DNA from: Lachnospiraceae bacterium
GTDB taxonomy: Bacteria > Bacillota > Clostridia > Lachnospirales > Lachnospiraceae
DNA length: 64,000 bases
Assembly: GCA_949383255.1 (NCBI GenBank)
Contig: CASJPF010000001.1
Span: forward strand, 1-64,000
Reading direction: 5' to 3'
The translations under genes were made by a program, and so were the position numbers. Positions 25,003 to 50,033 of this stretch are shown one piece after another (position 1 is the stretch's first letter; every line of letters begins with the position of its first letter). The notes under the pieces are model-generated. The model made no database searches. It saw nothing but the letters and a program-made list of their open reading frames with translations, and was not told the origin of the DNA.

Positions 25003-25154
25003 AAATTTATGTAACAGTTCAGACAAGCTGACCTGTTACTGCAAAAATCCATTGAAAATCGTCTTTGGCGATGGGATTTTTGCTCTCAAGCTTTATATTT
25101 TTGTACGGTCAGCGCAGTAAATGCGCAGACCTGTCTGAACGATTACAAATTTAT
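25003..25154 (+). mobile_element. MITE-like element, copy 1, with 8-bp target-site duplication
   Basis: The element itself is 25011-25146 (136 bp), flanked by AAATTTAT at 25003-25010 and again at 25147-25154. Ends are GTAACAGTTCAGACA and, read inward from the right, GTAATCGTTCAGACA. Inside: hairpin GTAACAG/CTGTTAC; a long stem GCAAAAATCC/GGATTTTTGC (25041-25050 and 25074-25083) with a bulge ATTGAAA on its left side and a tip hairpin ATCG/CGAT; then a hairpin around GCGCAGTAAATGCGC within 25107-25131. No coding capacity. The stop codon of the rhomboid-like gene begins right after the duplication, at 25155-25157. Confidence 0.85.
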
Positions 25155-26042
25155 TCACTTGACATGTGTATGTGTAAAAAGGTGGTCCTGACAATATTCA
25201 TAATTTCCATTGCACTTGGAGCAAAAACGAAATTCTGCTTCTGGATTGTCCTCACTGTTCTTGCCACAAATCGCACACTTGTGCTTTGCTACGCTCGCTG
25301 GCTTTGCCCGTTTCACTTCCCGATTGTAATCATGTCGTCTCTTAACTTGCCGCGGCGAGATACGCATACCAATTCCGCTTCGTGTCATTAAGAAAAACAG
25401 AACAAAATTTAAAAGAGATGCGCCAATAATAATCTTGCCCACAAGATCACTCTGCAAAAATTGTATTCCCAAAAGGACTGCATAGGCAATTCCCATCCAC
25501 TTTACCTTGATAGGAATAATAAACATTAACAGCACCTGCACATCTGGAAATGTCGCCGCAAAACCCAAGAAAATAGACATATTGACAAAATAAGTGCTAA
25601 AGCTGCGTGCCACAAGCAGAAAATAAGTTTCTGTTCCATACAAAATAGTTCTCATTTCATAGTAGCGGCGGAACCCAGGAATATAACTGATTCCCATAAT
25701 TAAAAAGCTTCCAATAATAGTGAAGAGCATTCCCATCAAAAGATATACATTATAATAAAATGTTCCCCATGTCCGCTCAAGATTTGTCCCCACAGAATAA
25801 TAGAACATTAACATTACAATCGTCAAGAGATCCAGACTTGACGGCGGTATAAGAATCCATGTGACAAGCCGCCAGATTTGACCATGCAGTATTAGATATG
25901 GATTTAAGGTTAGAAAATCCACAATTGCTGGATTGATATATCGCATTGCGTATCCCAACACATACCCTAATATCAAGTATAGTGATAGATTCGGTATTGC
26001 GTATTTTCCAAACTTCCGCTCCATTTTATTCAGAAAATTCAT
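25155..26042 (-). CDS. Rhomboid-like membrane protein with C-terminal zinc ribbon
   Basis: A 295-residue membrane protein with about six hydrophobic segments. The first part resembles rhomboid proteases (GQIWRLVTWILIPP, VGTNLERTWGTFYYNVYLLMG), but the catalytic GxSG serine motif is not evident, so it is probably inactive as a protease. The tail carries a probable zinc ribbon: CAIC, then CSKC, then C-x-x-H (CQDH). The ATG at 26042 is chosen for AGGAG 7 nt upstream, over the ORF's earlier start. Function unknown; a membrane chaperone or adaptor role is only a guess from inactive rhomboids in general. Confidence 0.8.
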   Translation of the reverse strand: MNFLNKMERKFGKYAIPNLSLYLILGYVLGYAMRYINPAIVDFLTLNPYLILHGQIWRLVTWILIPPSSLDLLTIVMLMFYYSVGTNLERTWGTFYYNVYLLMGMLFTIIGSFLIMGISYIPGFRRYYEMRTILYGTETYFLLVARSFSTYFVNMSIFLGFAATFPDVQVLLMFIIPIKVKWMGIAYAVLLGIQFLQSDLVGKIIIGASLLNFVLFFLMTRSGIGMRISPRQVKRRHDYNREVKRAKPASVAKHKCAICGKNSEDNPEAEFRFCSKCNGNYEYCQDHLFTHTHVK

Positions 26043-26464
26043 TTTTACACTCCTGCCTTTCACCTTTAAAATTCACTTGTCTTCTCAGTATATCATTCAC
26101 AACAAAAAATGTAAACCAATCTAAATTTAACCAATGGAAAAATAATACTTTTTTTAGATTTACAGTATTATTTTCGCCAGTTTCTTCATACATATATAAC
26201 AATTTGTTGTTTGTCCCCAAAAAATTTCGTTAAATTTTTCCAAAAAAGTATAAAGTTTTCACGAACTTTTAATCAAGTGGTTTATTGCGTTTTGCGTGCC
26301 ACTGTCGTATAATAGCAGAAGTATGTTAAAAAAGTCGAGTACAGAATTGCAGGTGTGCCAACTTGTAAATATGTCAGCTTATTGACATGCACGCTGCAGC
26401 AAAAATGCCACTGGCATTCTTGAATTTCATTGCATATAGTTCCTATATATCATTTTAGAAAGGC
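26043..26464 (+). other. Intergenic region between divergent genes: inverted repeat and leader
   Basis: This 422-bp gap separates the rhomboid-like gene (minus) from the activase gene (plus). It holds an AT-rich 11-bp inverted repeat (26139-26149 and 26164-26174), a good promoter at 26285-26313, and then a leader of about 145 nt. The leader has two small hairpins: ATGTCA/TGACAT (26371-26376 and 26383-26388) and AATGCC/GGCATT (26404-26409 and 26413-26418). No known riboswitch core was recognised and no small gene was found. Confidence 0.5.
26285..26313 (+). promoter_or_regulatory. Promoter of the activase gene
   Basis: TTGCGT (26285-26290), a 17-bp spacer and a perfect TATAAT (26308-26313). 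Transcription from here would begin near 26320, leaving a long leader of about 145 nt. Confidence 0.7.
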
Positions 26465-26476
26465 ATGGTTATTTAC

Positions 26477-29400
26477 ATGAATAAAAAAAATAAGGAGTTT
26501 TATACACTAGGAATTGATATTGGCTCAACTACGGTAAAAGTCGCCATCTTAGATGCAGAACACAATCTGCTCTTCTCTGACTACAAACGCCATTATGCCA
26601 ATATTCGGGAGACGCTCTCCTCGCTTTTGCAAGATGCTTACGCAAAACTTGGAAACTTAACGCTTCATCCAATGATAACTGGTTCTGGTGGATTAACTCT
26701 TGCCAATCATTTAGGCGTGCCCTTTGTGCAGGAAGTGATTGCTGTGTCTACCTCGCTGCAAGAACTTGCCCCTAAGACAGATGTCGCTATCGAGCTTGGC
26801 GGTGAAGACGCCAAAATTATCTATTTTGAAGGCGGTAATGTGGAACAGCGCATGAACGGCATCTGCGCCGGTGGCACAGGCTCTTTTATTGACCAGATGG
26901 CTTCACTGATTCAGACAGATGCATCGGGTCTAAACGAGTATGCCAAAAATTATAAATCACTTTATACCATTGCAGCGCGCTGCGGGGTATTTGCCAAGAC
27001 AGATATTCAACCTTTGATTAATGAAGGCGCAACCAAAGAAGACTTGTCAGCCTCCATTTTTCAGGCAGTGGTCAATCAGACCATCAGCGGACTTGCCTGC
27101 GGAAAACCAATCCGCGGTCATGTGGCGTTTTTGGGCGGACCGCTGCATTTTCTTTCCGAGCTGAAAGCAGCATTTATCCGCACTTTAAAGCTAGACGAGG
27201 AGCATATTATTGACACTGCAAACGCACATCTTTTTGCCGCAATTGGCTCGGCACTCAACGCCAAAAAAGAAACCTATTTTTCTATGTCTGAAATGGTAAA
27301 AAAACTTTCTTCTGACATTAAAATGGAATTTGAAGTTGCCCGTATGGAACCTCTGTTCTCCAACGAGGCAGAATACAAAACCTTTCAGGCAAGACATCGT
27401 TCCTATCATGTGAAAAATGCAAACTTAAGTAACTATCATGGAAAATGCTTTTTAGGCATTGATGCAGGGTCTACCACTACCAAGATTGCAGTGGTTGCAG
27501 AAGACGGAACACTATTATATTCATTTTATAGCAATAACAACGGAAGTCCATTAAATACTGCTATTGCTTCTATACAAGAAATATATCGCCTGTTGCCTGA
27601 TGATGCATCCATTGTTCACTCTTGCTCTACAGGATATGGAGAAGCATTATTCAAAGCTGCCTTTATGTTAGACGAGGGCGAAGTCGAAACGGTGGCACAC
27701 TATTATGCCGCTGCCTTTTTCAATCCTGCTGTAGATTGCATTATTGACATTGGCGGTCAGGATATGAAGTGTATCAAAATCAAAAACCAGACAGTAGACT
27801 CCGTGCAACTCAACGAAGCATGTTCTTCTGGCTGTGGTTCCTTTATTGAGACCTTTGCAAAATCCTTGAATTATAGTGTGCAAGATTTTGCAAAAGCAGC
27901 GCTTTTTGCAAAACATCCAATTGACCTTGGCACACGCTGTACTGTATTTATGAATTCTAAGGTAAAACAGGCACAAAAAGAAGGCGCAGAGGTTTCTGAT
28001 ATTTCTGCTGGTCTTGCCTACTCTGTTATAAAAAATGCCTTGTTTAAAGTAATTAAAGTCTCTGATGCAAGCGAACTTGGTAAAAATATTGTTGTGCAAG
28101 GCGGAACATTCTACAATGATGCAGTGCTGCGCAGTTTTGAAAAGATAGCAAACTGTGAAGTGATTCGCCCTGACATTGCAGGCATTATGGGCGCATTTGG
28201 CGCCGCGCTAATCGCAAGGGAGCGCTATCAATCCGCTGTAGAAAAATCAACCACCATGTTGAGCATTGACCAGATTAATGAACTTGCTTTTACTACTTCG
28301 CTTGTAAAATGCAAAGGCTGTACGAACTCCTGCCGTCTGACTGTCAACAAATTCTCCGATGGCAGAAGTTACATATCCGGCAACCGCTGCGAACGCGGTC
28401 TAGGGAAAACAAAAACAGACAATAACATTCCAAACTTATTTGCGTATAAACTAGAAAGATTGTTCTCCTACACACCACTCTCGGAAAGCGAGGCAGCGCG
28501 TGGGCGCGTAGGAATACCAAGAGTATTGAATATGTATGAGAACTACCCTTTTTGGTTTACGTTCTTTACAAAACTTAAATATCAAGTGGTGCTCTCACCG
28601 CTGTCAAATAGAAAAATTTATGAGATGGGCATTGAATCTATACCAAGCGAGTCCGAATGCTATCCTGCAAAACTTGCACATGGTCATGTGGAATGGCTTA
28701 TCAAACAAAACGTAGACTTTATCTTTTATCCTGCACTGTTTTATGAGCGAAATGAGTTTGACGAGGCAAACAATCACTACAACTGCCCAATTGTAACCTC
28801 TTATTCTGAAAATATTAAGAACAATGTGGAAGCGATTGAACGCGGCGAAGTCGTGTTTAAAAATCCATTTATGTCTTTTCGCGAGCCTGCCCTGATTTTA
28901 CAATCACTAGAAAAAGAATTTCCAGATATTTCTATTGATGAGTTAAGAGAGGCTGTCAATGCGGCATGGCAGGAACTTGACAACGCGCGAAAAGATATGT
29001 CCCGAAAAGGGGAGGAGGTTCTTACATATCTTGAGAAAAACCATACACGCGGCATTGTACTTGCAGGTCGGCCCTATCATATTGACCCAGAAATTAACCA
29101 CGGTATTCCTGAGCTAATCAATTCTTATGGAATTGCAGTGCTCACAGAAGACGCAATATCGCACTTAGCAAAACCAGAGCGCCCGCTAATTGTGTCTGAC
29201 CAATGGATGTATCACTCAAGACTTTATGCCGCAGCAAGCTATGTCAAAACGCGAGACGACTTAGACTTAATTCAGCTAAACTCTTTTGGCTGTGGACTTG
29301 ATGCTGTCACCACAGACCAAGTAAACGATATTTTAACCGGTTCAGGCAAAATTTATACTTGTCTAAAAATTGACGAGGTAAATAATCTTGGTGCGGCGCG

Positions 29401-30856
29401 TATTCGTATTCGCTCTCTGCTTTCAGCCATTCGTGTGCGCGAGGAACGTCATCAAGAACGAACAATTCAGCCTAGCAGCATAAAAAGAGTTCTTTTTACA
29501 AAAGAAATGCGCAAAAATTATACCATACTCTGCCCGCAAATGTCTCCGATTCACTTTGATTTGCTTGAGCCAACTTTCCGAAGATGTGGTTATAATCTAG
29601 TTGTGCTCAACAATGACAACAGAGGTAGCATTGATATGGGATTAAAATATGTCAATAACGACGCTTGTTATCCATCTTTATTGGTCGTTGGACAGATTAT
29701 GGAGGCAGTGCTTTCCGGCAAATATGATACCGATCATCTTGCTGTTGTAATGTCACAGACAGGTGGCGGCTGTCGCGCAACAAATTATATTGGATTTATC
29801 CGCCGCGCACTTGAAAAGGCGGGCTACCAACATATTCCGGTTATCTCTATCAGTCTTTCAAAATTAGAGAGCAACCCGGGCTTTCAATTAACGCCAATGC
29901 TATTGCTGCGCGCAATCTATGCTGTGAATTTTGGTGATATTTTTATGCGATGTGTCTACAGAATGCGCCCTTATGAGGCTGTCTCTGGTTCTGTTGATGC
30001 AGTGCACCAGAAATGGATTCAAAAGTGTTGCGACTTCCTTAGTCGTAAATACCTGTCATTTTACACCTACAAAAAAATGTGTCGTGAAATGATTGCGGAG
30101 TTTGACGCAATTCCTACTTTAAATATTAAGAAACCACGTGTGGGAATTGTTGGTGAGATTTTGGTTAAATTTTCTCCTGCTGCAAACAACCAACTTGTAG
30201 AATTACTAGAACACGAAGGCGCTGAGGCAGTTGTGCCCGACTTGATGGATTTTATGTTCTACTGCTTTTATAATCAGCTTTACAAGGCAGAAAACCTTGG
30301 CACCAGCAAAAAAGCTGCAAAGCTTTGCAAACTTGGAATTAAAGCAATCCAAACACTTAGAAAACCAATGAGCGACGCATTTGCTGCAAGCAAACACTTT
30401 ATCCCGCCTGCTGACATCTATGAGACAGCAAAAAATGCACAAGAGATTGTCTCCCTTGGCAACCAGACAGGCGAAGGCTGGTTCCTCACAGGGGAAATGC
30501 TTGAATTGCTCCATACAGATACTCCGAATATTGTATGTACACAACCTTTTGGCTGTCTGCCAAACCACGTTGTTGGCAAAGGTGTGATTAAGGAATTGCG
30601 GAAACGTCACCCAGAGGCTAATATTGTCGCTATTGACTATGACCCAGGGGCTTCAGAAGTCAATCAGCTCAACCGCATTAAACTAATGCTTTCCACCGCC
30701 CAAAAGAACTTAGACAAGGCCGCGGAGACAAAGCCACAGCAAGAAGACCTATCGGAATCTACATTGCAGCAAGCTTCTATCAATACGAAAAAACATTTTC
30801 ATAAAAGACGTTCCAAAGGAAGAAGAAAAGACAATACAAAAAATAAATCCGCGTAA
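26477..30856 (+). CDS. Giant acyl-CoA dehydratase activase-like protein (double BcrAD/BadFG ATPase)
   Basis: A 1459-residue protein of a family common in Clostridia. Two ATPase domains of the BcrAD/BadFG type occur in tandem, the first opening with [15 protein letters not shown], the second with [16 protein letters not shown]. Each has a cysteine loop near the predicted [4Fe-4S] site: [10 protein letters not shown] in the first and [11 protein letters not shown] in the second. A Cys-rich linker ([12 protein letters not shown]...NRCERG) leads to a DUF2229 region and a 2-hydroxyacyl-CoA dehydratase-subunit-like C-terminal half. The tail is low-complexity and basic. Known activators use ATP to push an electron into a dehydratase; the actual target of these large fusions is not established. 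The second ATG (26477) fits the family better than 26465. Confidence 0.88.
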
Positions 30857-30860
30857 AAAA

Positions 30861-30883
30861 CAGGGCCAAAAGCCCTGTTTTTT
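30861..30883. terminator. Bidirectional terminator
   Basis: Stem CAGGGC/GCCCTG with loop CAAAA (30861-30877), flanked by an A-run on the left and six T on the right. It lies between the activase (plus) and alpha-galactosidase (minus) genes, which converge, and can serve both. Confidence 0.9.
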
Positions 30884-30890
30884 CACCTTC

Positions 30891-33074
30891 TTACAACGCC
30901 TCCATATAAATCTGATACGCCTGATACTCTCCCATCTCAACTGGCATTGGCAATCCTGCTGCCATTAGTGCAGAGCCATAATAGCATGTCCCTGTCTCTG
31001 CATTCTTGTAAACAGCATCTGGATTTAGCCCTTTTAGTCGAACATAATTCACTGTCATATTTCCGTGAATCTCCTGCATTACCACGCTAAGCAACACTTG
31101 TTTTTTATCCTCTGACACAGTTTCCCATGCCACATACGCATCTGCAAATGGATTCGACAAACGATAATAGTCCCCTTTACAAATTAGCGCCTCATATTTT
31201 TTATAGCGTATAATCTGCCCTTTAATCTCTTCTTTTTCTTCACTGGAAAGTGTCTTAGGATTTAATTCATATCCAAACGTGCCCGCCATTGCAACCACGC
31301 CTCGCGTATTTAGACTGACACTCCTTCCTGTCTGGTGATTTGGAACCGCGGACACATGCGAGCCAACCACGGAAATTGGATAAAAGAACGATGTCCCATA
31401 TTGAATACGCAGACGGTCCACCGCGTCTGTATTATCACTGCACCAGATTTGTGGTGTATAGTACAACATTCCTGCATCAAACCTGCCGCCGCCTCCACTA
31501 CAACCCTCTATCAACATATCTGGATAACGCTGCATTAATCGTTCCAAAAAATCATACACGCCAAGCACATAATCATACGTCACTTTTCCCTGTGCATTTT
31601 CCATAGAATATATATCCGTGAGACTTCGGTTCATATCCCACTTTACATACTCGATATTCCCTTGGTCAAGCACGCTGCAAATCTGGTTAAAAATATAGTC
31701 CCGCACATCTTTTCTGGAAAAATCAAGCACTAATTGATTTCGTGCGCGAACTGGTTTTCTCCCCGGAATTTGAATTGCCCAGTCAGGGTGATTGCGATAA
31801 ATATCGCTGTCCTCCGATACCATTTCCGGCTCTATCCAAATGCCAAACTTTATTCCAATGGCATTGATGCGCCGAATCAGTTCTCCCAATGTACAGCCAA
31901 GTTTCTCCTCATTGACCTGCCAATCGCCAAGACCGCTGTTATCGTCATTGCGCTTGCCAAACCAACCGTCATCCATCACCACCATATCAATCCCAAGTTC
32001 CGCTGCTTCTTCCGCCAAGTGATAGATTGTCTCACCGTCAAAATCAAAATAGGCTGCCTCCCAGCTATTAATTAACACTGGTCTTGACTGACAACTGTAT
32101 TTTCCTCTGCAAAGATGTCTCCTTATACACTGGTGATACCGTCTTGACAATGTGCCAAACCCTTCGTCTGAATAACACAAAATTGTCTCTGGTATCAATA
32201 ATGTTTCCCCTTTTTCAAGCGGATAGTGAAACAGATCACTATTTAACCCCATCAAGGCTCTTGTCTGTCCATACTGATCTCGCTCCACCTCACACTTAAA
32301 ATTTCCACTGTAGACAAAAACCATACCATAGCAACTGCCCATCTCCTCCGTCGCGTCTTTGTCTGCGATAATCACTGCAGGATTGTACTGATGACTGGAA
32401 GTTCCCCTGCGGCTCCCAATCACCTGACACCCATACGCAATCCTTGTCCGCTGAAAATTACGTTCCATCGCATGACGCCCGCAAAAACTAATAAAATCAT
32501 AATCCCCATTTATGAAATCCAAGCATGTTGAAGCTGCCTTCTCCACATAAATTTGATCGGAACCCAAATTTATAATCTTTGCGCTTCTTGTGATAATGTT
32601 CACTTCCTCTAGCACACCATACAAAAGTCGCACTTGCACTTTGCTAACCGAATCCTCTAAGACAATTTCGAGCGTCTCCGCCTCATTGTCAGCCGCATAC
32701 ACAGCAGGAAGTCCTTTTAACGCATATTTTCCCCTTTTTATCTCATGGTTAACATAGCGCAAATCACAGTGTTCTGAGCCATCCGCATTGCGTATCACAA
32801 GAGCGTTATTGCGATAATCGCCAGTTCCTGCCTGCGGGTACTCCTGTGGCAAGGCATCCATAGAGTATGTCCTGTCATTTCCGGCATCCGCCGGGTTTCC
32901 TGAAAAGCCTCTGTCATAGTAGGTCAGCAGATAATCCATATTTCCAGAAATCCGCTTCCCATAGTACAGATGTAGCAGAAAACCCAACCGGTCCACTTTC
33001 ATCTGATAAGTCGTGTGTCTTGTATTTAATGTAAAAACTTGATTATCCTTTTGAAATTGAATTGCCATATACAT
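30891..33074 (-). CDS. Alpha-galactosidase, GH36
   Basis: A 727-residue cytoplasmic glycosidase that releases terminal alpha-galactose from melibiose, raffinose-family sugars and similar oligosaccharides. The N-terminal beta-sandwich is followed by the barrel: MDDGWFGKRND, then YVKWDMNR with the predicted nucleophile Asp480, and the SGGGGRFD...SDNTDA segment with the acid/base aspartate. Length and motifs fit the bacterial tetrameric GH36 subgroup. No signal peptide, so it acts on imported sugar. It is the last gene of the operon with the ABC transporter at 33087-36094. A TAGGAG site lies 4-5 nt before the ATG at 33074. Confidence 0.95.
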   Translation of the reverse strand: MYMAIQFQKDNQVFTLNTRHTTYQMKVDRLGFLLHLYYGKRISGNMDYLLTYYDRGFSGNPADAGNDRTYSMDALPQEYPQAGTGDYRNNALVIRNADGSEHCDLRYVNHEIKRGKYALKGLPAVYAADNEAETLEIVLEDSVSKVQVRLLYGVLEEVNIITRSAKIINLGSDQIYVEKAASTCLDFINGDYDFISFCGRHAMERNFQRTRIAYGCQVIGSRRGTSSHQYNPAVIIADKDATEEMGSCYGMVFVYSGNFKCEVERDQYGQTRALMGLNSDLFHYPLEKGETLLIPETILCYSDEGFGTLSRRYHQCIRRHLCRGKYSCQSRPVLINSWEAAYFDFDGETIYHLAEEAAELGIDMVVMDDGWFGKRNDDNSGLGDWQVNEEKLGCTLGELIRRINAIGIKFGIWIEPEMVSEDSDIYRNHPDWAIQIPGRKPVRARNQLVLDFSRKDVRDYIFNQICSVLDQGNIEYVKWDMNRSLTDIYSMENAQGKVTYDYVLGVYDFLERLMQRYPDMLIEGCSGGGGRFDAGMLYYTPQIWCSDNTDAVDRLRIQYGTSFFYPISVVGSHVSAVPNHQTGRSVSLNTRGVVAMAGTFGYELNPKTLSSEEKEEIKGQIIRYKKYEALICKGDYYRLSNPFADAYVAWETVSEDKKQVLLSVVMQEIHGNMTVNYVRLKGLNPDAVYKNAETGTCYYGSALMAAGLPMPVEMGEYQAYQIYMEAL

Positions 33075-33086
33075 TTTTCTCCTAAA

Positions 33087-34798: not shown

Positions 34799-34816
34799 AT
34801 CTCCACACCCCTTCTC

Positions 34817-38534: not shown

Positions 38535-38545
38535 ATTCAATTCTC

Positions 38546-39259: not shown

Positions 39260-39271
39260 TTTTAAAACCTC

Positions 39272-41047: not shown

Positions 41048-41085
41048 AATGATACCTTTTCCTTTCCCATAATCTTTTTTCTAAC

Positions 41086-42120: not shown

Positions 42121-42183
42121 AACTCCTCCTTTGCCATTTCTAACTGTTTATACTTTCTAACTTATATCTTTTATGTCCTATTT

Positions 42184-42765
42184 TTATTTCATATAAGAAA
42201 CCAATGCCTCCACGCCATACAACAATGTATTGAGTCCCTCTTGATATTTATAATTGACATTCGCTGCAAGCATACTGCCAATCCCTGTCATAAGAATCCA
42301 AATATTTTGCGCCACCCCGCTGCTATTTATCTCTGCGCGCACGTCACCAGATAATTTTCCCTGCTCTATCAAATAAGTCAAATAATGAACAATCTCATTT
42401 TTTAAACCTTTGTCTGTAACTGTATAAAGTATTGTATAATATTGAAAATAGGCATTTTTTTCATAAATATAAGTAAACATTGCCTGAACCAGCGCTGTCA
42501 TATTCTCATAAAAGGAAACCTGGGGCGTTATAGCGGTCTTTGCCTTTGCCAAAATCTCCTCGTTACACCGCTGTGCGACCAGCAAATTAATCTCATCAAT
42601 ATCCCGAAATCGATTGTAAATCACTCTCCTATCACAGTTTAACTCCTTGCATAATCTTGTGACGGTCAGTGCATCCACACCTTCATGGCAACCAATATTG
42701 ACTGCAAGGTCTTCTATGCGCTTGCTTGTTTCATCTTCTATCCGTTTTCCCTTTGAGAATGCCAT
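42184..42765 (-). CDS. TetR/AcrR-family regulator
   Basis: A 193-residue regulator. The N-terminal helix-turn-helix is GVDALTVTRLCKELNCDRRVIYNRFRDIDE; a helical ligand-binding domain follows, with several aromatic residues. It lies 63 bp upstream of the aldo/keto reductase gene in the same direction and may control it and itself. A dyad that could be its operator is at 42790-42807. Confidence 0.88.
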   Translation of the reverse strand: MAFSKGKRIEDETSKRIEDLAVNIGCHEGVDALTVTRLCKELNCDRRVIYNRFRDIDEINLLVAQRCNEEILAKAKTAITPQVSFYENMTALVQAMFTYIYEKNAYFQYYTILYTVTDKGLKNEIVHYLTYLIEQGKLSGDVRAEINSSGVAQNIWILMTGIGSMLAANVNYKYQEGLNTLLYGVEALVSYMK

Positions 42766-42782
42766 TCTTTCACCTCATTTTC

Positions 42783-42812
42783 TCAGTTCCTGATTATTAT
42801 CTTATCAGTTCC
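42783..42812. promoter_or_regulatory. Candidate TetR operator
   Basis: Upstream of the TetR gene: CTGAT (42790-42794) and ATCAG (42803-42807) form a dyad, and TCAGTTCC occurs twice as a direct repeat (42783-42790 and 42805-42812). The placement suits autoregulation; the assignment is inference. Confidence 0.35.
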
Positions 42813-42843
42813 AACCAAAAATGGCAAGGAAATACAAAAAATA

Positions 42844-43006
42844 TAGTTATCGTTACTATTCACGCCCCAGAAGGTCGCTCATAGTAACCGATTCGGGGCG
42901 ATATTCAAAGTTTTGCTACGCAAAAATCGCCCCTCACTCCTGAATCATGTTCTTACGGAATGCGCAGTTCAGCGCATTCCTGACCCATGAACAGCAATTA
43001 GTTCTC
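42844..43006 (+). mobile_element. Decayed MITE-like element with imperfect target-site duplication
   Basis: Element 42852-42998 (147 bp). Flanks are TAGTTATC (42844-42851) and TAGTTCTC (42999-43006), 7/8 identical. The terminal repeats GTTACTATTCA and, inward from the right, ATTGCTGTTCA agree at 8 of 11 positions. Inside, the family architecture is kept: hairpin GTTACT/AGTAAC, stem GGGGCGAT/ATCGCCCC with the left-side bulge ATTCAAA and a tip hairpin TTTTGC/GCAAAA, then hairpin GGAATGCGC/GCGCATTCC. The LeuRS-derived gene reads into it and stops at 42969-42971. Confidence 0.65.
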
Positions 43007-43745
43007 CTAATACAGTTGATGTCCACAATATTATAGACAGACTTGGCGCATATGGCGCTATCAACGCAATAAACTTCTGGCAAAGCTTTGTCACTTCTGG
43101 GTTTTTTGCTTGTTCTTCTTTCTGTTCCATCTCAAATTTGTTCTCTGTACTTCCATGTGGAACAGCCGTCTCAATTGCATGGGCATGAATCTTAGCTACA
43201 ATCTCCCCAATCTTCAATTCTTTTTGGTATAGATTCAAAAGCTCCATCAATGCTGATACAATTTTATGGCGATTTGACATTGTATTACCACGGTTGATAC
43301 ATTCTTTTATTTTTCGGTTTGTGTTCTCTACTGCCTCTTTAAGTCTACAAATACGCTCTGTAGAAAGCATTTCTTTGTTGTAGTTACCGCTTCTGTTCCA
43401 CAAATCAGCGACAAGTATCATTCTTCTGTATCTGCTAAGAAACTTGTAAATGCCTTCGAGTGCGCCCTCCTTCCAACTATCATAGTAAGGTGCATCTTTC
43501 TCCTTTGGCGTCTGTTCAAACAGCAAATACAGCCTTAGACAGTCTGTACCATAATCCATTATTAAATCTTCATCAAACACACGTTTTCCTGTCTCATCAA
43601 GCCACTTTAACAAAACAGCTCTGTTTTCTTTTTCTTCACACAAGTCTGCGCAGAGAAAACTGTCGGGGATATTACACCCCGACAGTTTCTTTGCATTGTA
43701 TTCAATTTCTCTATGATTCATCGGCGTCAAAATATCATTCACCAT
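42969..43745 (-). CDS. LeuRS-derived fragment protein (anticodon-binding-domain paralog)
   Basis: A 258-residue protein, 47 bp downstream of leuS. It is related to the end of the LeuRS catalytic domain and its anticodon-binding helices: its DYGTDCLRLYLLFEQTP...SWKEGALEGIYKFLSRYRRMI parallels Leu[18 protein letters not shown]...[18 protein letters not shown], and later MELLNLYQKELK and FIALIAPYAPSL parallel LeuS helices. It lacks HIGH, KMSKS, the editing domain and the C-terminal domain, so it cannot charge tRNA alone. The last nine residues come from a mobile element (42852-42998). It may bind tRNA-Leu or LeuRS, or be decaying. Confidence 0.7.
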   Translation of the reverse strand: MVNDILTPMNHREIEYNAKKLSGCNIPDSFLCADLCEEKENRAVLLKWLDETGKRVFDEDLIMDYGTDCLRLYLLFEQTPKEKDAPYYDSWKEGALEGIYKFLSRYRRMILVADLWNRSGNYNKEMLSTERICRLKEAVENTNRKIKECINRGNTMSNRHKIVSALMELLNLYQKELKIGEIVAKIHAHAIETAVPHGSTENKFEMEQKEEQAKNPEVTKLCQKFIALIAPYAPSLSIILWTSTVLGELIAVHGSGMR

Positions 43746-43792
43746 TTTTGCCCCCGTACATTGATATTTATTGAATAGAAATTAAAGTTATT

Positions 43793-46207
43793 TTATTTTG
43801 CTACAATATTCAATATTCTACCTTTTACATAGATTTCCTTCACAATGTTCTTTCCGGCTGTAAGTTCCGCAATCAAAGGAATCGCATGTGCTTTCTCCTT
43901 TACAGAGACCTCTTCCTCATCAAGTCCAACTTCTAAAGTTGCCTTTACTTTGCCGTTAATTTGCACTGCAATCTCCACAGTAGACTCTACAGTCTTTGCC
44001 TCGTCATACTCCGGCCACTTCTGCTGATAAGCTCTTCCATTGCCAAAATGCATTTCCCAGAGCTCCTCTGTCATATGTGGTGCCACTGGATTTAACAATA
44101 AAATCAGTGTGGCATACTCGCCTTTTGTGACACTGTTTGCCTTGTAAAATTCATTGACAAGCGCCATCATTGCCGCTATCGCGGTATTGAATTTCAATCC
44201 CTCAAAGTCATTGGAAACTTTCTTAATTGTCTGGTGAATTTTTGTCTCCATCTCTGGCCGATAATTCTCTTGGTCAATTATCATATCTTGAAGTTTCCAT
44301 ACACGGTCAAGGAAACGACGGCACCCCTTAACGCCCTCCATACTCCATGCTGCGCTCAAATCAAAAGCACCAATAAACATTTCATAGGTTCTAAGTGTGT
44401 CTGCACCAAATGCATTTACCACGTCATCAGGATTTACTACATTTCCCCTTGACTTGGACATCTTCTCCCCATTCTCACCAAGAATCATACCATGCGAAGT
44501 ACGCTTTTTATACGGCTCATCACAAGGCACTAAATTCTGATCATACAGGAATTTATGCCAAAATCTTGAGTAGAGCAAATGAAGTGTTGTGTGTTCCATT
44601 CCACCGTTGTACCAGTCAACTGGCATCCAGTATTCAAGCGCCTCTTTTGATGCAAATTCTTTGTTATTATCTGGATCAATATATCTTAAGAAATACCAAG
44701 AAGATCCCGCCCACTGTGGCATGGTATCCGTCTCGCGTTCCGCCTTGCCACCGCACTTTGGACAAGTGGTCTCCACCCAGTCGCGCATCGCAGCAAGCGG
44801 TGACTCACCTGTATCTGTTGGCATATAACTTTCTACCTCTGGCAATCTCAAAGGCAATTCGCTCTCGTCAAGTGGAACGTACCCACAGCAAGGACAATTC
44901 ACAATAGGAATCGGTTCACCCCAATAGCGCTGGCGGGAGAACACCCAATCGCGTAGCTTAAAATTAACTTTTTTATGGCCAATTCCTTTTTCTTCAAGCC
45001 AATTTGTAATTGCTTTCTTTGCATCCTTTACTTCCATTCCATTTAGAAAATCCGAATTGCAAAGCGTACCTGTCGCAACATCTGTAAACGCTTCATTTTG
45101 CACATCGCCGCCCGCAACTACTTCTATAATAGGAAGACCAAATTTTTTCGCAAAATCCCAGTCTCTTGTATCATGCGCTGGAACTGCCATAATCGCACCA
45201 GTACCATATGACATCAATACATAGTCAGAAACCCACACTGGAATTTCCTTGTTGTTGACTGGATTAATTGCCGAAATACCATGAATGCACACACCTGTCT
45301 TATCCTTTGCTAACTCTGTGCGTTCAAAATCGGACTTCCTAGAAGCCTGTTCGCGGTAAGCTGCTATTTCTGCATAATTTCCAATCTCAGCCTTGTACTT
45401 CTCAATCAATGGATGTTCTGGCGAGATTACCATATAGGTTGCGCCAAAAAGAGTGTCTGGTCTTGTTGTGTAAATTAAAAGTGTTTCATCCTTATCTTTA
45501 ATCTTAAACTCTACCTCAGCACCCTCAGAACGCCCTATCCAATTTTTCTGCGAAACTTTAACCTTTTCAATATAATCAACATGGTCAAGCCCCTCAATTA
45601 ATTTATCTGCATAATCCGTAATTTTCAGCATCCACTGTGATTGCATCTTGCGAATAACCTCAGAACCACAGCGCTCACACACACCGTTTACCACTTCCTC
45701 ATTGGCAAGCCCAACTTTGCAAGAAGTACAAAAGTTTATTGGCATCTCGCTCTTGTAGGCAAGCCCCTTCTTAAAAAGCTGCAAGAAAATCCACTGTGTC
45801 CACTTGTAATAGTTCTCGTCTGTTGTGTTTACTTCCTTGGACCAATCAAACGAATACCCAAGCGCCTTTAACTGATTCTTAAAATGCTCTACATTGTTCC
45901 TAGTCACAATCTTTGGGTGAATCTTGTTCTTAATTGCATAATTTTCTGTCGGCAAGCCAAACGCATCCCACCCCATAGGAAACAGAACGTTATAGCCCTG
46001 CATTCTGCGTTTTCTTGACACAATATCCATCGCAGTATATGGTCTTGGATGCCCTACATGAAGTCCCTGTCCTGACGGATACGGAAACTCTACCAACGCA
46101 TAATACTTTGGTTTTGTCTTGTCCACACCGACCTTAAAGGCCTCCTCCTTATCCCAGATATTCTGCCACTTTTTCTCAATGTCCTTTGGAGAATACTCTT
46201 TGTTCAT
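43793..46207 (-). CDS. leuS: Leucyl-tRNA synthetase
   Basis: Class I LeuRS of 804 residues. HIGH-type motif HVGHPRPYT near residue 53, the CP1 editing domain ([21 protein letters not shown], and the [15 protein letters not shown] region), zinc-type cysteines [20 protein letters not shown], the anticodon-binding helices and the C-terminal domain. It has its own promoter (46289-46317) and a weak hairpin near its ribosome-binding site. No T-box signature is present. A LeuRS-derived paralog follows it. Confidence 0.97.
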
Positions 46208-46288
46208 CTCTTTTACTCCTTTTTTAACATCTTCTATTGTAAAAGATGCTTATTTTCTAATATTTTCAATACAAAATACTCTTGTGTA

Positions 46289-46317
46289 ATTGTATCGCAA
46301 TCGTTTTTAGATTGCAA
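46289..46317 (-). promoter_or_regulatory. leuS promoter
   Basis: On the minus strand TTGCAA (46317-46312), a 17-bp spacer, TACAAT (46294-46289), then about 80 nt of leader that contains a CATCTT/AAGATG dyad just before the ribosome-binding site. Confidence 0.65.
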
Positions 46318-46348
46318 GTTTTTATCTAATAAGTTTAGAAAATTTGTA

Positions 46349-46500
46349 ATAGCCTTGTAACAGTTCAGATAGGTCTGCGCATTTACTGCGCTGACCGTGC
46401 GAAAACATAAAACTTGAAAGCAAAAATCCCATCGCCAAAGGCGATTTTTAATGGATTTTTGCAGTAACAGGTCAGCTTGTCTGAACTGTTACATAGCCTT
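46349..46500 (-). mobile_element. MITE-like element, copy 2, with 8-bp target-site duplication
   Basis: Element 46357-46492 (136 bp) in reverse orientation to copy 1, flanked by ATAGCCTT at 46349-46356 and 46493-46500. Its terminal repeats GTAACAGTTCAGAYA match exactly except one base. It differs from copy 1 at about ten positions by eye. The tip of the central stem is fully paired here (ATCGCC/GGCGAT) where copy 1 has a G-T pair. The stop codon of the DUF4375-like gene begins within the duplication at 46500. Confidence 0.88.
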
Positions 46501-47006
46501 TATAGGGATCGATTATTTAGCCCTGTAAAAAGTTGCTTTGCATTTTGAGGTTTAGAGAGATACGCAATATAAAAATTAATCATAAGTCCATCTGGATAAT
46601 CACATAATTCACCGTCAATTCTTTCAATAATATCTCCTCGTTCTCCCTCAAAAAACCATTCCCATTCAGGCACTGTTTTAGCAGGTATCAATGATATAAA
46701 TTCATCTAAAAGTGCCGCCGATTTGAATGCACCTAAGTTTTCATATGCTTTTTTTATTTCGGGCAAAGCAAGAAAAAACTCTTTTTCCGCAGACAAAGAA
46801 GGGAGCATGTCAATCTGACAGATGTCCTCCAATTTCGAGGCAAGATATAGTGTCTTTTGTACTTCATTCATTTCCTCTAAAGATTTCCAAGGCAGATATT
46901 CCCATAACAGTACAAAAAGAAGTTCTTTTTTTTCATTATCGCTAAGTGTAAGCAATTTTTCAATATCTTCTTTTAATATAATGGTATGATATATACTTTT
47001 TTCCAT
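46500..47006 (-). CDS. DUF4375/DMP19-like protein
   Basis: A 168-residue cytosolic helical protein. The run EVQKTLYLASKLED...LSAEKEFFLALPEIKKAYENLGAFKSAALLDEFISLIP and the later ELCDYPDGLMINFYIAYLSKPQ fit the DMP19/DUF4375 pattern (a core that carries a 'N-G-G-F' like motif is degenerate here), so I call it tentatively. The start codon is 1 nt after the upstream stop, with GAGG 6 nt before it, so it is translated with the kinase-like gene at 47008. Function unknown. Confidence 0.6.
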   Translation of the reverse strand: MEKSIYHTIILKEDIEKLLTLSDNEKKELLFVLLWEYLPWKSLEEMNEVQKTLYLASKLEDICQIDMLPSLSAEKEFFLALPEIKKAYENLGAFKSAALLDEFISLIPAKTVPEWEWFFEGERGDIIERIDGELCDYPDGLMINFYIAYLSKPQNAKQLFTGLNNRSL

Positions 47007-47007
47007 T

Positions 47008-47622
47008 TTATGCCTCTTTGTTTTTTTCTTTCATCTTTATTGCCTGAACAATCAGTTCCATGCACTGTGTTTTTGTAAAGATACCAGAATCCAATGAGAG
47101 TGTATAATTCTCAACTTTTCCCCACTCTTTTTGTGTAAAATATCTATAGTAAGTAGCCCTTGAACGGTCTTTTTGCATAAGCTCTTTTCGGACACGCTCT
47201 TCTTGGTCTGTCACGCCCTCATGACGCTGGACACGTTTCACACGATGCTCCATATCCGCGTGAATAAACACATGAAAAACATCATCGCGCTCCCTGAGAA
47301 TATAATCTGCGCCGCGCCCTACAATCACACAGTTTCCTTTCTCTGCAATACTTTTAATTACCTTGTCCTGTGCCTCTTTAATTTCCTCGTAAGGCACTTG
47401 TGCTTTTCTGTAGTATGGCACAAAGCCACTTTTCATATCAATATAATCTTGATCAGACATATTCTCACCATTTTCCAAAATGAGTTTCTCATCAATCCCC
47501 ATTTTGCTTGCCACAGATGCCACAATTTCTTTATCATAAAAATCATAGCCCAATCGCTCTGCCAACAATCTACCTACCGTATGTCCACCACTTCCTGTCT
47601 CTCGACTAATCGTAATAATCAA
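47008..47622 (-). CDS. Cytidylate kinase-like protein
   Basis: A 204-residue P-loop kinase of the cytidylate-kinase-like family (AAA_26-like), with Walker A region ISRETGSGGHTVGRLLAERLG and LVGRGADYILRE-type segment VIVGRGADYIL, and a lid-like arginine region AHMEHRVKRVQR. It starts at TTG 47622, supported by a perfect AGGAGG 7 nt upstream; no ATG is near. Real substrate unknown; true Cmk genes differ. It follows rtcB by 12 bp. Confidence 0.85.
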   Translation of the reverse strand: MIITISRETGSGGHTVGRLLAERLGYDFYDKEIVASVASKMGIDEKLILENGENMSDQDYIDMKSGFVPYYRKAQVPYEEIKEAQDKVIKSIAEKGNCVIVGRGADYILRERDDVFHVFIHADMEHRVKRVQRHEGVTDQEERVRKELMQKDRSRATYYRYFTQKEWGKVENYTLSLDSGIFTKTQCMELIVQAIKMKEKNKEA

Positions 47623-47634
47623 TTTAATACCTCC

Positions 47635-48771
47635 TTATCTCTCCGCACCTGCCTTAAAATTATAGACTGGCTTAATAACTTTCTCTATCTTTACAGTCTC
47701 CTCGATTACTGGCACCATATCTTCTATCTTACGATACGCAAACGGGGACTCATCCAAGGTATCCTTATTGATGCAAATGGAATAAATTCCCTCCATCGCC
47801 TTTTTAAACTCAGAGACAGTGTGATGCTCCTTCACTTCTGAGCGCCTATAAACACGCCCAGAACCATGCGGAGCCGACTGATTCCAGTCCACATTGCCAA
47901 GCCCTGTCCCTAAAATAATTCCATCACGCATATTCATTGGAATAATAACCTGCTCACCTTCTTGCGCGCTAATTGCCCCCTTTCTTAAAAGAGGCACATC
48001 TTTTGAAAAATCAATATAGTTGTGAATGCAAGTATAACTGTCTTGTACCTTCCATTTCATACCGCGCGTAATCTCATCAATCATCGCTTCTCTATTCAGA
48101 CGCGCAAACTCCTGCACAATTTCCAAATCATAGAGATAATCCTGCAATAACGCTCCTTCCAGACAAGTCAATTCATATGGAGCATGACCTTGCTTTTTCA
48201 TCTGAGATTCTTTTTGTCCTTCTTTTAAATAATACTCTGTCACTTCCATGCCAAGATGGCGACTACCAGAATGGACTACTAGGTAAAGTGTATCCTCTTC
48301 GTCTTTATCCACTTCAATAAAATGATTGCCACCGCCAAGGGTTCCAATACTGCGCTCCGCCTTTGCCTCCTCAATCGCCTTATAGCAATGTAGTCTGCGA
48401 AGTGCAATTTTATCACTCAGTTTATGACAGTTCTTTCTGACTGCACCACCAACAGGCACATTATCACGAATAATTGTATCCAATTTTTGACATTCCAGAC
48501 GTTTCGCTTTCAGTTTCGCAATTGTCATGCCACAACCAATATCCACCCCGACAAGATTTGGCATCAGCAAATCCCTCACTGTCATTGTCAATCCAATGGT
48601 TCCTACTTTTCCGGGATGCACATCTGGCATAACGCGAATCTTGCTTCCTGCGGCACAAGGGTGGTCGCAAATCATCTGTAACTGCTTGCGCGCATAATCA
48701 TCCATTGCATACTGTTCATTCTCCGTTGTATAAACAATCGCATTTGTATATTTTCCGTATATTGTAATCAT
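47635..48771 (-). CDS. rtcB: RtcB-family RNA ligase
   Basis: A 378-residue RtcB-type enzyme, which joins RNA 2',3'-cyclic phosphate or 3'-phosphate ends to 5'-OH ends using GTP and Mn2+. Metal and nucleotide motifs: MPDVHPGKVGTIG, GVDIGCGM, GTLGGGNHFIEV, VVHSGSRHLG, and SAPHGSGR with the histidine that carries GMP. It is shorter than E. coli RtcB (408), as in the RtcB2-like subgroup. The start at 48771 (MITIYGKY) has AAGGA 4 nt upstream. Mobile element copy 3 lies 41 bp upstream. Confidence 0.92.
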   Translation of the reverse strand: MITIYGKYTNAIVYTTENEQYAMDDYARKQLQMICDHPCAAGSKIRVMPDVHPGKVGTIGLTMTVRDLLMPNLVGVDIGCGMTIAKLKAKRLECQKLDTIIRDNVPVGGAVRKNCHKLSDKIALRRLHCYKAIEEAKAERSIGTLGGGNHFIEVDKDEEDTLYLVVHSGSRHLGMEVTEYYLKEGQKESQMKKQGHAPYELTCLEGALLQDYLYDLEIVQEFARLNREAMIDEITRGMKWKVQDSYTCIHNYIDFSKDVPLLRKGAISAQEGEQVIIPMNMRDGIILGTGLGNVDWNQSAPHGSGRVYRRSEVKEHHTVSEFKKAMEGIYSICINKDTLDESPFAYRKIEDMVPVIEETVKIEKVIKPVYNFKAGAER

Positions 48772-48804
48772 AAAATCCTTTTTCCTTTCCAAATGTTATA
48801 CGAA

Positions 48805-48956
48805 TATCTTTTGTAACAGTTCAGATACCTTCACTGTTACAGGCAAAAATTCATACAAAATCGCCTTTGGCGATGAATTTTTGCTTGCAGCCACCACGCT
48901 TTCCTACGGTATTTGCAGCACAGTGCAAATACCTGCCTGAACTGTTACTATCTTTT
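48805..48956 (+). mobile_element. MITE-like element, copy 3, with 8-bp target-site duplication
   Basis: Element 48813-48948 (136 bp), flanked by TATCTTTT at 48805-48812 and 48949-48956. Central stem GCAAAAATTC/GAATTTTTGC (48843-48852 and 48875-48884): relative to copies 1 and 2 the inner pair C-G is replaced by T-A on both arms. Left bulge ATACAAA, tip ATCGCC/GGCGAT. The third hairpin is GGTATTTGCA/TGCAAATACC, again different in sequence but paired. It lies upstream of rtcB, the one copy not at a gene end. Confidence 0.88.
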
Positions 48957-49010
48957 ATTTAAATTCTTTATTGCCTACCAATTTCCATTCTTTGGGTGCC
49001 TTGTGCAGAA

Positions 49011-49038
49011 AAAAAACACCTCCAAAAAGGTGTTTTTT
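49011..49038. terminator. Strong terminator
   Basis: A perfect 11-bp stem AAAAAACACCT/AGGTGTTTTTT with a 6-nt loop. It has the A/T runs of a bidirectional terminator and would stop transcripts coming from the calcium-repeat gene at 49286. Confidence 0.85.
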
Positions 49039-49076
49039 CCAAAAAAGCTAGAGATTTCGTACATATACAAATTAAT

Positions 49077-49160
49077 CGAGTAGGGAAGTCTTATCTTCCC
49101 TACTCGCCGCGCGACCTGCGCGCCACTTTAGTGGCATATTTCCTCTGCGCAGGTCTGCGC
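49077..49160 (-). repeat. Structured repeat, family 2, copy 2
   Basis: Read on the minus strand: outer GCGC/GCGC (49160-49157 with 49112-49109), stem ACCTGCGC/GCGCAGGT (49154-49147 with 49121-49114), bulge AGAGGAAATAT, tip hairpin GCCAC-TAAA-GTGGC (49135-49122), then GG and a perfect 12-bp hairpin CGAGTAGGGAAG/CTTCCCTACTCG (49106-49077). Compared with 3185-3270 every stem has a different sequence but stays paired; the bulge (AGGAA.AT) and GGCGAGTAG are kept. Function unknown. Confidence 0.6.
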
Positions 49161-49285
49161 ATAAATACAAAACTACTCTCTTAGAACTGCGAAAGTTTGC
49201 TTACAACAATTCTTATAATGCTCTGAGGAGAACTACACCCTGTCACACTTTCTCAGAGTTCGTGCTCTCTACCTATCGAAAAGAT

Positions 49286-49771
49286 TTACCAGCAACGTCC
49301 ATGATGTCCACTGCTGTGATGCCTGCTGCTATGACATCCATAATAATAATTGGGATCATAAGTAACAGTAGGTGTTGTGTAGGTCACAGTAGGAGCTGGC
49401 GCTGCATAGGTTACTGTAGGTGTGCTTGGAGCTACTGTGGTGCTTGCAGCACCATCCAGTGTACTTGCTGGAACTGGTTTTCCATGATCATGACAGTGAT
49501 CACAGATTCCATCCTTATCCGCATCTACAAAATAGTCACAGATTCCGTCTGTATTGACATCTGAATAGCAATGAAAATCGCAAATTCCATCGCCATCTTC
49601 ATCAACGAAGTAGTGATTTCCACAGATTCCATCACCGTCTGCATCCATAAAACATTCCCCTAATTTACAGCCTCCGATATGACAGGTCTCAACCTCTTCT
49701 GCGGCATTTACGGAAAACGCCGGAGCGAGCATTACTGCACAGGCAAGTCCCATAGCCAACAATTTTTTCAT
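49286..49771 (-). CDS. Secreted protein with DxDxDGICD calcium-binding-type repeats
   Basis: A 161-residue exported protein. Signal peptide 1-24 (MKKLLAMGLACAVMLAPAFSVNA), then about four acidic repeats (DADGDGICGN, DEDGDGICDF, DVNTDGICDY, DADKDGICDH), resembling thrombospondin type 3 or dockerin-like calcium loops with added cysteines, then a Thr/Pro/Val-rich repetitive linker and a His-rich tail (CHSSRHHSSGHHGRCW). The ATG at 49771 is preferred over the TTG at 49777, with AGGAGG 9 nt upstream. It probably binds metal at the surface. It is a single-gene unit with promoter and terminator. Confidence 0.75.
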   Translation of the reverse strand: MKKLLAMGLACAVMLAPAFSVNAAEEVETCHIGGCKLGECFMDADGDGICGNHYFVDEDGDGICDFHCYSDVNTDGICDYFVDADKDGICDHCHDHGKPVPASTLDGAASTTVAPSTPTVTYAAPAPTVTYTTPTVTYDPNYYYGCHSSRHHSSGHHGRCW

Positions 49772-49815
49772 ATCCAAATACCTCCTAAAATATAGAAAAT
49801 CCTCTGCTTTTCTTT

Positions 49816-49844
49816 ACCATAGCACACTTTAAAACCTTTTTCAA
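49816..49844 (-). promoter_or_regulatory. Promoter of the calcium-repeat gene
   Basis: On the minus strand TTGAAA (49844-49839), 17-bp spacer, TATGGT (49821-49816), about 45 bp before the ATG at 49771. Confidence 0.6.
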
Positions 49845-49865
49845 GCCCTATCTAAGCAACGATTT

Positions 49866-50033
49866 GAATTTTAGTAACAGTTCAGCCTTTGGCTTCCTGT
49901 TACAGACATCAAGCCATGCAAAACCACTTCGTGGTGGCTTGATGTATTTCTACCACTACACAGTTTTACGTGACTTATAAAGCCATAATTTGCAGTAAAT
50001 GCAAAGTCCTAGACTGAACTGTAACGAATTTTA
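49866..50033 (+). mobile_element. MITE-like element, copy 4, with 8-bp target-site duplication
   Basis: Element 49874-50025 (152 bp), flanked by GAATTTTA at 49866-49873 and 50026-50033. It keeps the GTAACAG/CTGTTAC first hairpin, but the central stem is a quite different sequence, ACATCAAGCC/GGCTTGATGT (49906-49915 and 49936-49945), with left bulge ATGCAAA and tip AACCAC/GTGGTT-type pairing; a TTTGCAGTAAATGCAAA hairpin comes last. The DUF3737 gene reads into it and ends at 50009-50011, so about 15 bp of the element are coding. Confidence 0.85.

What the first reader, a model, noticed from the sequence alone, without database searches (positions are those of the whole stretch)
25003..50033. 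A family of MITE-like elements with perfect 8-bp target duplications and conserved folded interiors
Copies at 25011-25146, 46357-46492, 48813-48948 and 49874-50025 share GTAACAGTTCAG ends in inverted orientation. Each is flanked by a different, perfect 8-bp direct repeat: AAATTTAT, ATAGCCTT, TATCTTTT, GAATTTTA. Three are exactly 136 bp. A decayed copy (42852-42998, 7/8 duplication) and a 42-bp remnant (20806-20847) also occur. Ends starting GTAA and 8-bp duplications are what is known for the IS66 family, so IS66-type mobilisation is inferred. No transposase gene is in the window.
Basis: partly seen in the sequence, partly recalled or inferred. Interest (0 to 1): 0.82.

Follow-up and report, generated by a model that had tools for sequence, protein, structure and literature searches.

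The report
Folded IS66-type MITEs in Lachnospiraceae
Some gut bacteria of the Lachnospiraceae carry over a hundred copies of a tiny jumping DNA that has no genes of its own, shares its end sequences with IS66-type transposons and keeps the same folded shape even where its sequence has changed.

Summary
Four window copies have 12-bp terminal repeats and different, perfect 8-bp target duplications. A model of the interior finds 119 matches in this genome, sister families included, and the family occurs in many Lachnospiraceae. Of 150 end pairs examined, 128 have flanks matching at 6/8 or more, 90 perfectly; shifted controls give 0-6. Two identical copies carry different duplications. Three copies have related empty sites with a single similar target.

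The IS66 inference is supported. In the genus, one IS66 relic has exactly these ends on both sides and another has the end beside it. Complete IS66 elements carry sister ends that match, 12/12 at the left end, further miniature elements with the same interior. No intact IS66 with GTAACAGTTCAG was found; this genome has no IS66 match.

The 42852 "decayed copy" belongs to a sister family.

The interior is unusual: hairpin, bulged hairpin, linker, hairpin, with many compensatory changes. The first hairpin pairs the left end with an internal inverted copy that mostly follows the end variant. I call it a new variant of a known kind; what the fold does is unproven.

The parts
25011..25146 (+). MITE copy, 136 bp, GTAACAG-type; H1 25011-25039, H2 25041-25083, H3 25107-25131; 8-bp duplication AAATTTAT at 25003-25010 and 25147-25154
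   Evidence: model R1 106 bits, E 1.3e-27 (this copy is in the model's seed). Hairpin borders read from the sequence.
46357..46492 (-). MITE copy, 136 bp, both ends exact; duplication ATAGCCTT at 46349-46356 and 46493-46500
   Evidence: R1 110 bits on the - strand (in the seed as L001)
48813..48948 (+). MITE copy, 136 bp, both ends exact; duplication TATCTTTT at 48805-48812 and 48949-48956
   Evidence: R1 82 bits
49874..50025 (+). MITE copy, 152 bp; right end GTTACAGTTCAG; duplication GAATTTTA at 49866-49873 and 50026-50033
   Evidence: R1 47 bits
42852..42998 (+). Copy of a sister MITE family with left end GTTACTATTCAC (the end of IS66 elements L089, L257, L258); flanks TAGTTATC / TAGTTCTC at 42844-42851 and 42999-43006; absent from the near-identical genome G042
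   Evidence: R1 37.6 bits
20806..20847 (-). 42-bp remnant identical to the left end (H1 and start of H2) of the 25011 copy

Best explanation
These are non-autonomous miniature transposons. A transposase of a divergent IS66 subgroup, encoded elsewhere, recognises the 12-bp ends in trans, cuts the target with an 8-bp stagger and inserts the element, so the 8 bp are duplicated. Elements with this interior carry at least four left-end variants (GTAACAGTTCAG, GTTACTATTCAC, GTTACTGTTCAC, GTTACAGTTCAG); the first three equal the end of an IS66 element or relic in the same genus, for the fourth none was found. So one interior module appears to have been carried by several IS66 specificities. The module is kept as a folded single strand: H1 (left end paired with an internal inverted copy of itself), H2 (a long hairpin with a bulge of about 7 nt), a linker ending in ACGG, and H3. 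Shown: ends, duplications, copy number, related empty sites, end sharing with IS66, compensatory changes. Inferred: action of the IS66 transposase, and selection on the fold in RNA or single-stranded DNA.
For: Ends and duplications. Identical 136-bp copies L012 and L013 with different duplications; identical 145-bp sister copies L391 and L392 with different duplications. Related empty sites for 3 copies. IS66 linkage: L093 and L107; L098 and L084 complete with perfect 8-bp duplications (Pfam); sister families. Fold: 26 pairs in 23 sequences, 91.6% of cells paired, 18 pairs with double changes; on four of five measures 0 of 500 shuffles as high; slid partners 28-44% paired. Interior folding z median -4.35 in 87 core elements against -0.16 in 140 genomic controls. 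Inner copy at 6/7 or better in 127 of 145 GTAACAG, 12 of 13 GTTACTA, 4 of 4 GTTACAG and 3 of 3 GTTACTG elements.
Against: No intact IS66 with exactly GTAACAGTTCAG was found; the own genome has no IS66 match; L093 has no target duplication (3/8). Of the IS66 with GTTACTATTCAC ends, L258 has unmatched flanks, L257 only a 7-bp repeat and L089 runs to its contig end. Differences against G042 show altered sites, not clean single targets. 22 of 150 end pairs match at 5/8 or less. 52 of 139 scored elements are outside the core set and fold less strongly (median z -2.5); a 140-bp subfamily (L035, L129) is barely found by the model (E 0.04 and 0.3). In one search the inner copy fits another end variant better in 13 of 169 elements, and relatedness means that the counts are not independent. 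The number of pair types is not exceptional (59 of 500 shuffles).
Confidence: 0.85

Rival explanations
1. The ends are moved by another 8-bp-duplicating family (for example IS256 or ISL3 type, recalled) and the IS66 neighbourhood is coincidental.
For: No complete IS66 with the exact GTAACAGTTCAG end was recovered, and the own genome has no IS66 match. Other transposase families were not searched for.
Against: Exact ends on both sides of an internally deleted IS66 and 3' of a second IS66 fragment; left ends of sister MITE families equal the ends of complete IS66 elements 12/12.
Confidence: 0.08
2. The paired arms are kept not by selection but by a mutational process: template switching between hairpin arms copies changes from one arm to the other, so compensatory changes arise without function.
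For: Whole arms differ between subfamilies while pairing is kept; the elements are palindromes.
Against: Such correction should also remove the asymmetric internal loop of H2, yet unconstrained folds of 7 of 12 representatives show 6-8 unpaired bases on one side against 0-3 on the other, and the loop sequence is aligned and conserved. The H1 inner arm mostly follows the left end across four end variants.
Confidence: 0.25
3. The internal inverted copy of the end is a second transposase-binding site, not a hairpin arm; H1 pairing is incidental and H2/H3 merely space the ends.
For: The inner copy (6/7 or better) sits at one end only (0 of 169 elements have it at both), like asymmetric binding sites in other transposons (recalled), and would have to follow the transposase's specificity.
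Against: It does not explain the compensatory changes of H2 and H3.
Confidence: 0.35

Closest known systems
IS66 family insertion sequences
   Same: Terminal repeats beginning GTAAC/GTTAC and 8-bp target duplications; exact ends shared with IS66 relics and, for the left ends of sister families, with complete IS66.
   Different: No transposase gene; only about 12 bp shared. Four other IS66 loci with paired ends begin GTAAG; the complete ones that match the sister families begin GTTAC.
CIR elements of Caulobacter/Brucella
   Same: Small intergenic repeat whose RNA is described as two stem-loop arms joined by a linker (PMC2229807, passages seen).
   Different: Other phylum (recalled); sequences not compared here; an end/inner-copy hairpin and an IS66 link are not in the passages seen.
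BOX and RUP of Streptococcus pneumoniae
   Same: Non-autonomous repeats with terminal inverted repeats, folded interiors and an IS proposed from its ends (PMC3049150 and PMC2229807, passages seen).
   Different: Other IS assignments (ISSpn2; IS630-Spn1); in BOX and RUP the two ends are described as paired with each other, here the left end can also pair with an inner copy.
ERIC / Correia (NEMIS) elements
   Same: 100-200 bp repeats with stable predicted folds (PMC2229807, passages seen).
   Different: That review describes a TA motif at the termini of most such families; here the ends are GTAAC/GTTAC with 8-bp duplications. Sequences not compared.

Membership tests
MITE (non-autonomous miniature transposon) | Short, no protein of its own | tested here: met
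   Most of 150 end pairs are 133-142 bp apart, too short for a transposase gene.
MITE (non-autonomous miniature transposon) | Terminal inverted repeats | tested here: met
   12-bp repeats; 77 exact ends in the genome against 1 control.
MITE (non-autonomous miniature transposon) | Target site duplication | tested here: met
   128 of 150 at 6/8 or better, 90 perfect; shifted controls 0-6 of 150; related empty sites for 3 copies.
MITE (non-autonomous miniature transposon) | Ends shared with an autonomous element | tested here: inconclusive
   For left ends of sister families met by complete IS66; for GTAACAGTTCAG only IS66 relics were found.
IS66 family | DDE_Tnp_IS66 transposase inside the element | tested here: not met
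   The miniature elements are too short to hold one; present in L093 (fragment), L098, L084, L258.
IS66 family | 8-bp target duplication | tested here: met
   for the MITEs; IS66 L084, L098 and L241, L242, L263 8/8; L239 only 5/8, L257 7 bp, L258 none.
IS66 family | Ends beginning GTAA (recalled rule) | tested here: met
   GTAAC in the main family; the sister families and their IS66 begin GTTAC.
IS66 family | Transposition by the IS66 transposase | not testable with these tools
   Needs an experiment.
Described RNA family (Rfam) | Match at the curated score | tested here: not met
   0 in the whole window; 0 at E<=1 for 46340-46510; two sub-threshold matches for L123.

The most novel reading that the evidence does not exclude
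The interior is a functional folded module (RNA or single-stranded DNA) that has been re-tailed with the ends of several different IS66 transposons, and H1 is a working hairpin copy of the terminal repeat (a folded decoy or a single-strand substrate for the transposase) that must be rebuilt whenever the ends change. Miniature elements would then be structured molecules that switch carriers, not just deleted IS elements.
Probability: 0.3. Interest if true: 0.78.

Novelty: new variant of a known kind. Interest (0 to 1): 0.58.

Why it matters
It gives a large natural data set (dozens of genomes; 119 and 128 model matches in two of them) in which a non-coding transposon's fold can be read from compensatory changes and tied to a transposase family. 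It makes two questions testable: why bacterial MITEs are so strongly folded, and how non-autonomous elements exchange the transposases that carry them. It also accounts for many intergenic repeats in gut bacteria.

Tried and rejected
Rejected: (a) 'Decayed copy' for 42852: it belongs to a sister family with its own ends. (b) Known RNA family: nothing in Rfam at its thresholds. (c) Phage or plasmid cargo: 1 stretch in IMG/VR (exact-end pattern), 3 partial matches in 50,697 phage records, none in 72,556 plasmids (one query each, and a different one for each). (d) G042 differences as clean empty sites: the sites differ locally, so I used related empty sites instead. (e) Intrinsic terminator: by eye no T-run follows H3; no terminator scan was run.

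Led nowhere: a protein search with the L093 fragment over 299 genomes, about one per genus of the family and cut at E 1e-15, found nothing; the same fragment in viral contigs found nothing; an IS66 fragment in Eisenbergiella porci (L270) has no clear right end; an 8.2-kb stretch between two facing ends in G010 gave no transposon by my end scan, and its far end belongs to a separate copy of about 137 bp. Literature: (held open-access library only; listings seen) listed no description of IS66 MITEs in Lachnospiraceae and no paper holding the 12-mer. Of PMC3189936 and PMC9769881 I saw passages only: table rows that mention IS66. PMC8024623: passages, not used. The review PMC10969869 has no hit for IS66 or Lachnospir in its main text (passages). 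This is no proof that none is in print.

Biases to keep in mind: 'core' elements were chosen by a script that looks for hairpins (99 of 140 parsed, 87 kept), so the core folding z-score is inflated by selection; the 52 non-core elements are given beside it. The H2 table (51 of 55 parsed) was fitted to pairing, its parser demanded a one-sided bulge of 4 nt or more, and it mis-registers some rows; I do not use it as evidence for the bulge. A1 holds 47 of 55 non-redundant core sequences (I left out eight of one subfamily with H2 arms like GGAATTGGG); A2 holds 23 chosen from A1, and its structure was drawn from one of them. The model R1 was built from A2, whose seed includes two elements (L164, L151) with the linker of the sister family. 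One search picks the orientation that favours the element's own end; 6 of 36 newly fetched rows were dropped there. In one search the strand list was off by one (an unrelated locus came first), so some rows print in reverse orientation; two rows held masked letters and were left out; the last row was not scored because the script stopped.
Full report
WHAT IS THERE. The four copies and their duplications are exactly as described: 25011-25146 (AAATTTAT), 46357-46492 (ATAGCCTT), 48813-48948 (TATCTTTT) and 49874-50025 (GAATTTTA), each with identical 8-bp flanks. A 136-bp query has 56 matches at E<=10 in the genome, many of them partial or of the ends alone. The exact 12-mer end occurs 77 times against 1 for the reversed control. 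A covariance model of the interior has 119 matches in this genome and 128 in its close relative G042 at E<=0.001, sister families included; these are lower bounds, because only 150 of over 1,100 candidates were scored. Of 14 genus genomes that I picked for this search, 12 have matches; G046 and G051 have none.

HOST AND DISTRIBUTION. The window's genus includes Lachnospiraceae bacterium COE1: two contig lengths of G010 (424,905 and 950,646) equal those of records KE159631 and KE159629. With exact ends on both sides, 7 of 24 genomes of the genus (own included) and 0 of 16 from other families of the order have elements. Most of the 80 titles shown name Lachnospiraceae or genera that I place there from memory (Mediterraneibacter, Fusicatenibacter, Blautia, Dorea, Roseburia, Eisenbergiella and others); others say Clostridiaceae, Clostridiales, Eubacterium or bacterium; two bins are labelled Armatimonadota and Omnitrophota, and their interiors look unrelated. 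The family is rare in the phage and plasmid collections searched.

MOBILITY. Of 150 end pairs in the loci then held, 90 have perfect 8-bp duplications, 28 match 7/8 and 10 match 6/8; 22 match 5/8 or less. Shifting the comparison by 1 to 12 bases leaves 0-6 at 6/8 or better. Of the 138 pairs 100-160 bp apart, 86 are perfect and 27 match 7/8. L012 and L013 are identical over 136 bp but carry GAAGTTTC and GAAACTTG. Each lies inside a copy of another genomic repeat, and element-free copies of those repeats hold one similar target (up to 7 of 8 bases alike); L016 also has an element-free relative (6 of 8). Against G042, the flanks of 12 of 13 tested copies are separated there as well, as if the element were present. 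Two copies, 42852 and 64578, are absent from G042 in an otherwise 98-99.97% identical stretch, but the sites are locally altered, so they show presence/absence and not the direction of change. The thirteenth, C61:6917, matched only a 79%-identical stretch without the element.

LINK TO IS66. The own genome has no DDE_Tnp_IS66 match; 18 of 38 genus genomes do. L093 (G050) is a 441-bp element with exact GTAACAGTTCAG on both sides and an IS66 C-terminal reading frame inside (Pfam 24.6 bits against a cut-off of 23.1); its flanks do not match. L107 (G015) has the exact end a few tens of bases after an IS66 C-terminal fragment. L091 has GTAACTATTCAG 3' of another fragment. Complete elements in the genus: L098 (G002), 2,323 bp, ends GTTACTTTTCAC, duplication TATCAATA; L084 (G003), 2,251 bp, ends GTTACTGTTCAC, duplication GCTGCTTT. 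With ends GTTACTATTCAC: L089 (G005, same genus; its right end is the end of the contig), L258 (flanks unmatched) and L257 (7-bp repeat), the last two from other carriers. As a positive control, four other IS66 loci with paired ends begin GTAAG; three have perfect 8-bp duplications and L239 5/8.

SISTER FAMILIES. The 42852 element belongs to a family of about 145 bp with left end GTTACTATTCAC, the end of L089, L257 and L258; its right end usually differs at one base. G005 holds both L089 and such copies (L387, L389, L394). Of 16 fetched copies, 8 have perfect duplications and 4 more 7/8; L391 and L392 are identical over 145 bp with different duplications. A third group in G015 (L427-L429) has left end GTTACTGTTCAC, the end of L084, and a fourth (L417, L418, L421 in G003) has GTTACAGTTCAG, for which no IS66 was found. 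Of 17 usable rows, 12 match at 7/8 or better. The model built only from GTAACAG elements finds 10 of 10 loci of the 145-bp family given to it, and the window copy, at E 8e-11 to 3e-3; of the complete IS66 loci given, only L257 shows a weak match beside the element (E 0.15). The linker CTCCTGAATCA(C/T)GTTCT(T/C)ACGG is shared by L164/L151 and the 145-bp family.

THE FOLD. Architecture: H1 (left end with an inner inverted copy), H2 (long stem, bulge of about 7 nt, short upper stem), a linker ending in ACGG, H3, right end. In 47 aligned sequences H3 is 99.1% paired, with double changes at 7 of 9 pairs; the upper H2 stem is 87.7% paired. In 23 interiors, 26 pairs are 91.6% paired with double changes at 18; on four of five measures no shuffle of 500 reached the observed value, slid partners fall to 28-44% paired, and the number of pair types is not exceptional (59 of 500). 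Unconstrained folds of 7 of 12 representatives show the asymmetric loop in H2. Interior folding z-scores: median -4.35 (87 core), -2.51 (52 non-core), -0.16 (140 genomic controls). In some elements (L153, L182; [quoted passage not shown] The inner copy matches the element's own left end at 6/7 or better in 127 of 145, 12 of 13, 4 of 4 and 3 of 3 elements of four end variants, and in 2 of 4 with other ends; another variant fits better in 13 of 169; none has a copy at both ends. By my estimate chance would give about 6% at the better end, but the elements are related.

CONTEXT. Of 74 core elements with a simple ORF neighbour on both sides, 56 lie between tandem genes, 13 between divergent and 5 between convergent ones (background gaps 472, 106, 102); 4 lie inside a longer ORF. 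In tandem settings the H1-to-H3 direction opposes the genes in 41 of 56 (p 0.0007, if independent). 37 of 66 neighbouring gene 3' ends, but 17 of 82 5' ends, are within 30 nt. Genes were taken as longest ORFs, so these are rough. In the window, 10 neighbouring ORFs were scanned: they include leucyl-tRNA synthetase, an RtcB-like protein, a DUF3737 protein and a sigma-70 region 3 protein. The DUF3737 ORF ends inside the 49874 copy, and an ORF without Pfam match ends inside the 42852 copy.

MECHANISM. Best reading: IS66-type transposases move these elements in trans with an 8-bp stagger. The fold is either selected (RNA or single-stranded DNA) or, less likely, kept by hairpin-arm correction; the inner copy may instead be a second binding site. 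The orientation bias and the closeness to gene 3' ends suggest that transcription matters, but no transcript was seen.

NOVELTY. Bacterial MITEs with stable folds are known (PMC10969869 and PMC2229807, passages seen). I found no described IS66-linked MITE family in Lachnospiraceae in the held library. The end-tracking H1 hairpin and the sharing of one interior by several IS66 end types are, to my knowledge, unusual.

Noticed in passing
window 49073-49165: A copy of another palindromic repeat (about 95 bp, begins AATCGAGTAGGGAAG); one search lists about 20 such places in this genome and as many in G042; one copy hosts MITE L012.
   Followed up: partly
L378, L379, L380: A further repeat of this genome (TATACTGAGCGTCAGATAAATCTGCC...) that hosts MITE L013.
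   Followed up: no
window 49286-49777 (-): ORF of 163 aa over an array of 36-42-bp repeats (49501-49657); no Pfam match.
   Followed up: no
L010 1501-1780: One MITE apparently nested in another, with outer duplication CTACTTTT; the inner right end is damaged.
   Followed up: no
L093 475-502: The 8 bp outside one end are the exact reverse complement of the 8 bp just inside the 12-bp repeat, making a longer palindrome; chance or a trace of a hairpin event.
   Followed up: no
L143, L148, L127: Elements with the same 12-bp ends but unrelated-looking interiors in metagenome bins labelled Omnitrophota and Armatimonadota; L143 also holds a 300-bp one with a perfect duplication.
   Followed up: no
L388, L397, L434, L257: Flanks that match as 7-bp repeats offset by one base: some insertions may have 7-bp duplications or a shifted end.
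   Followed up: no
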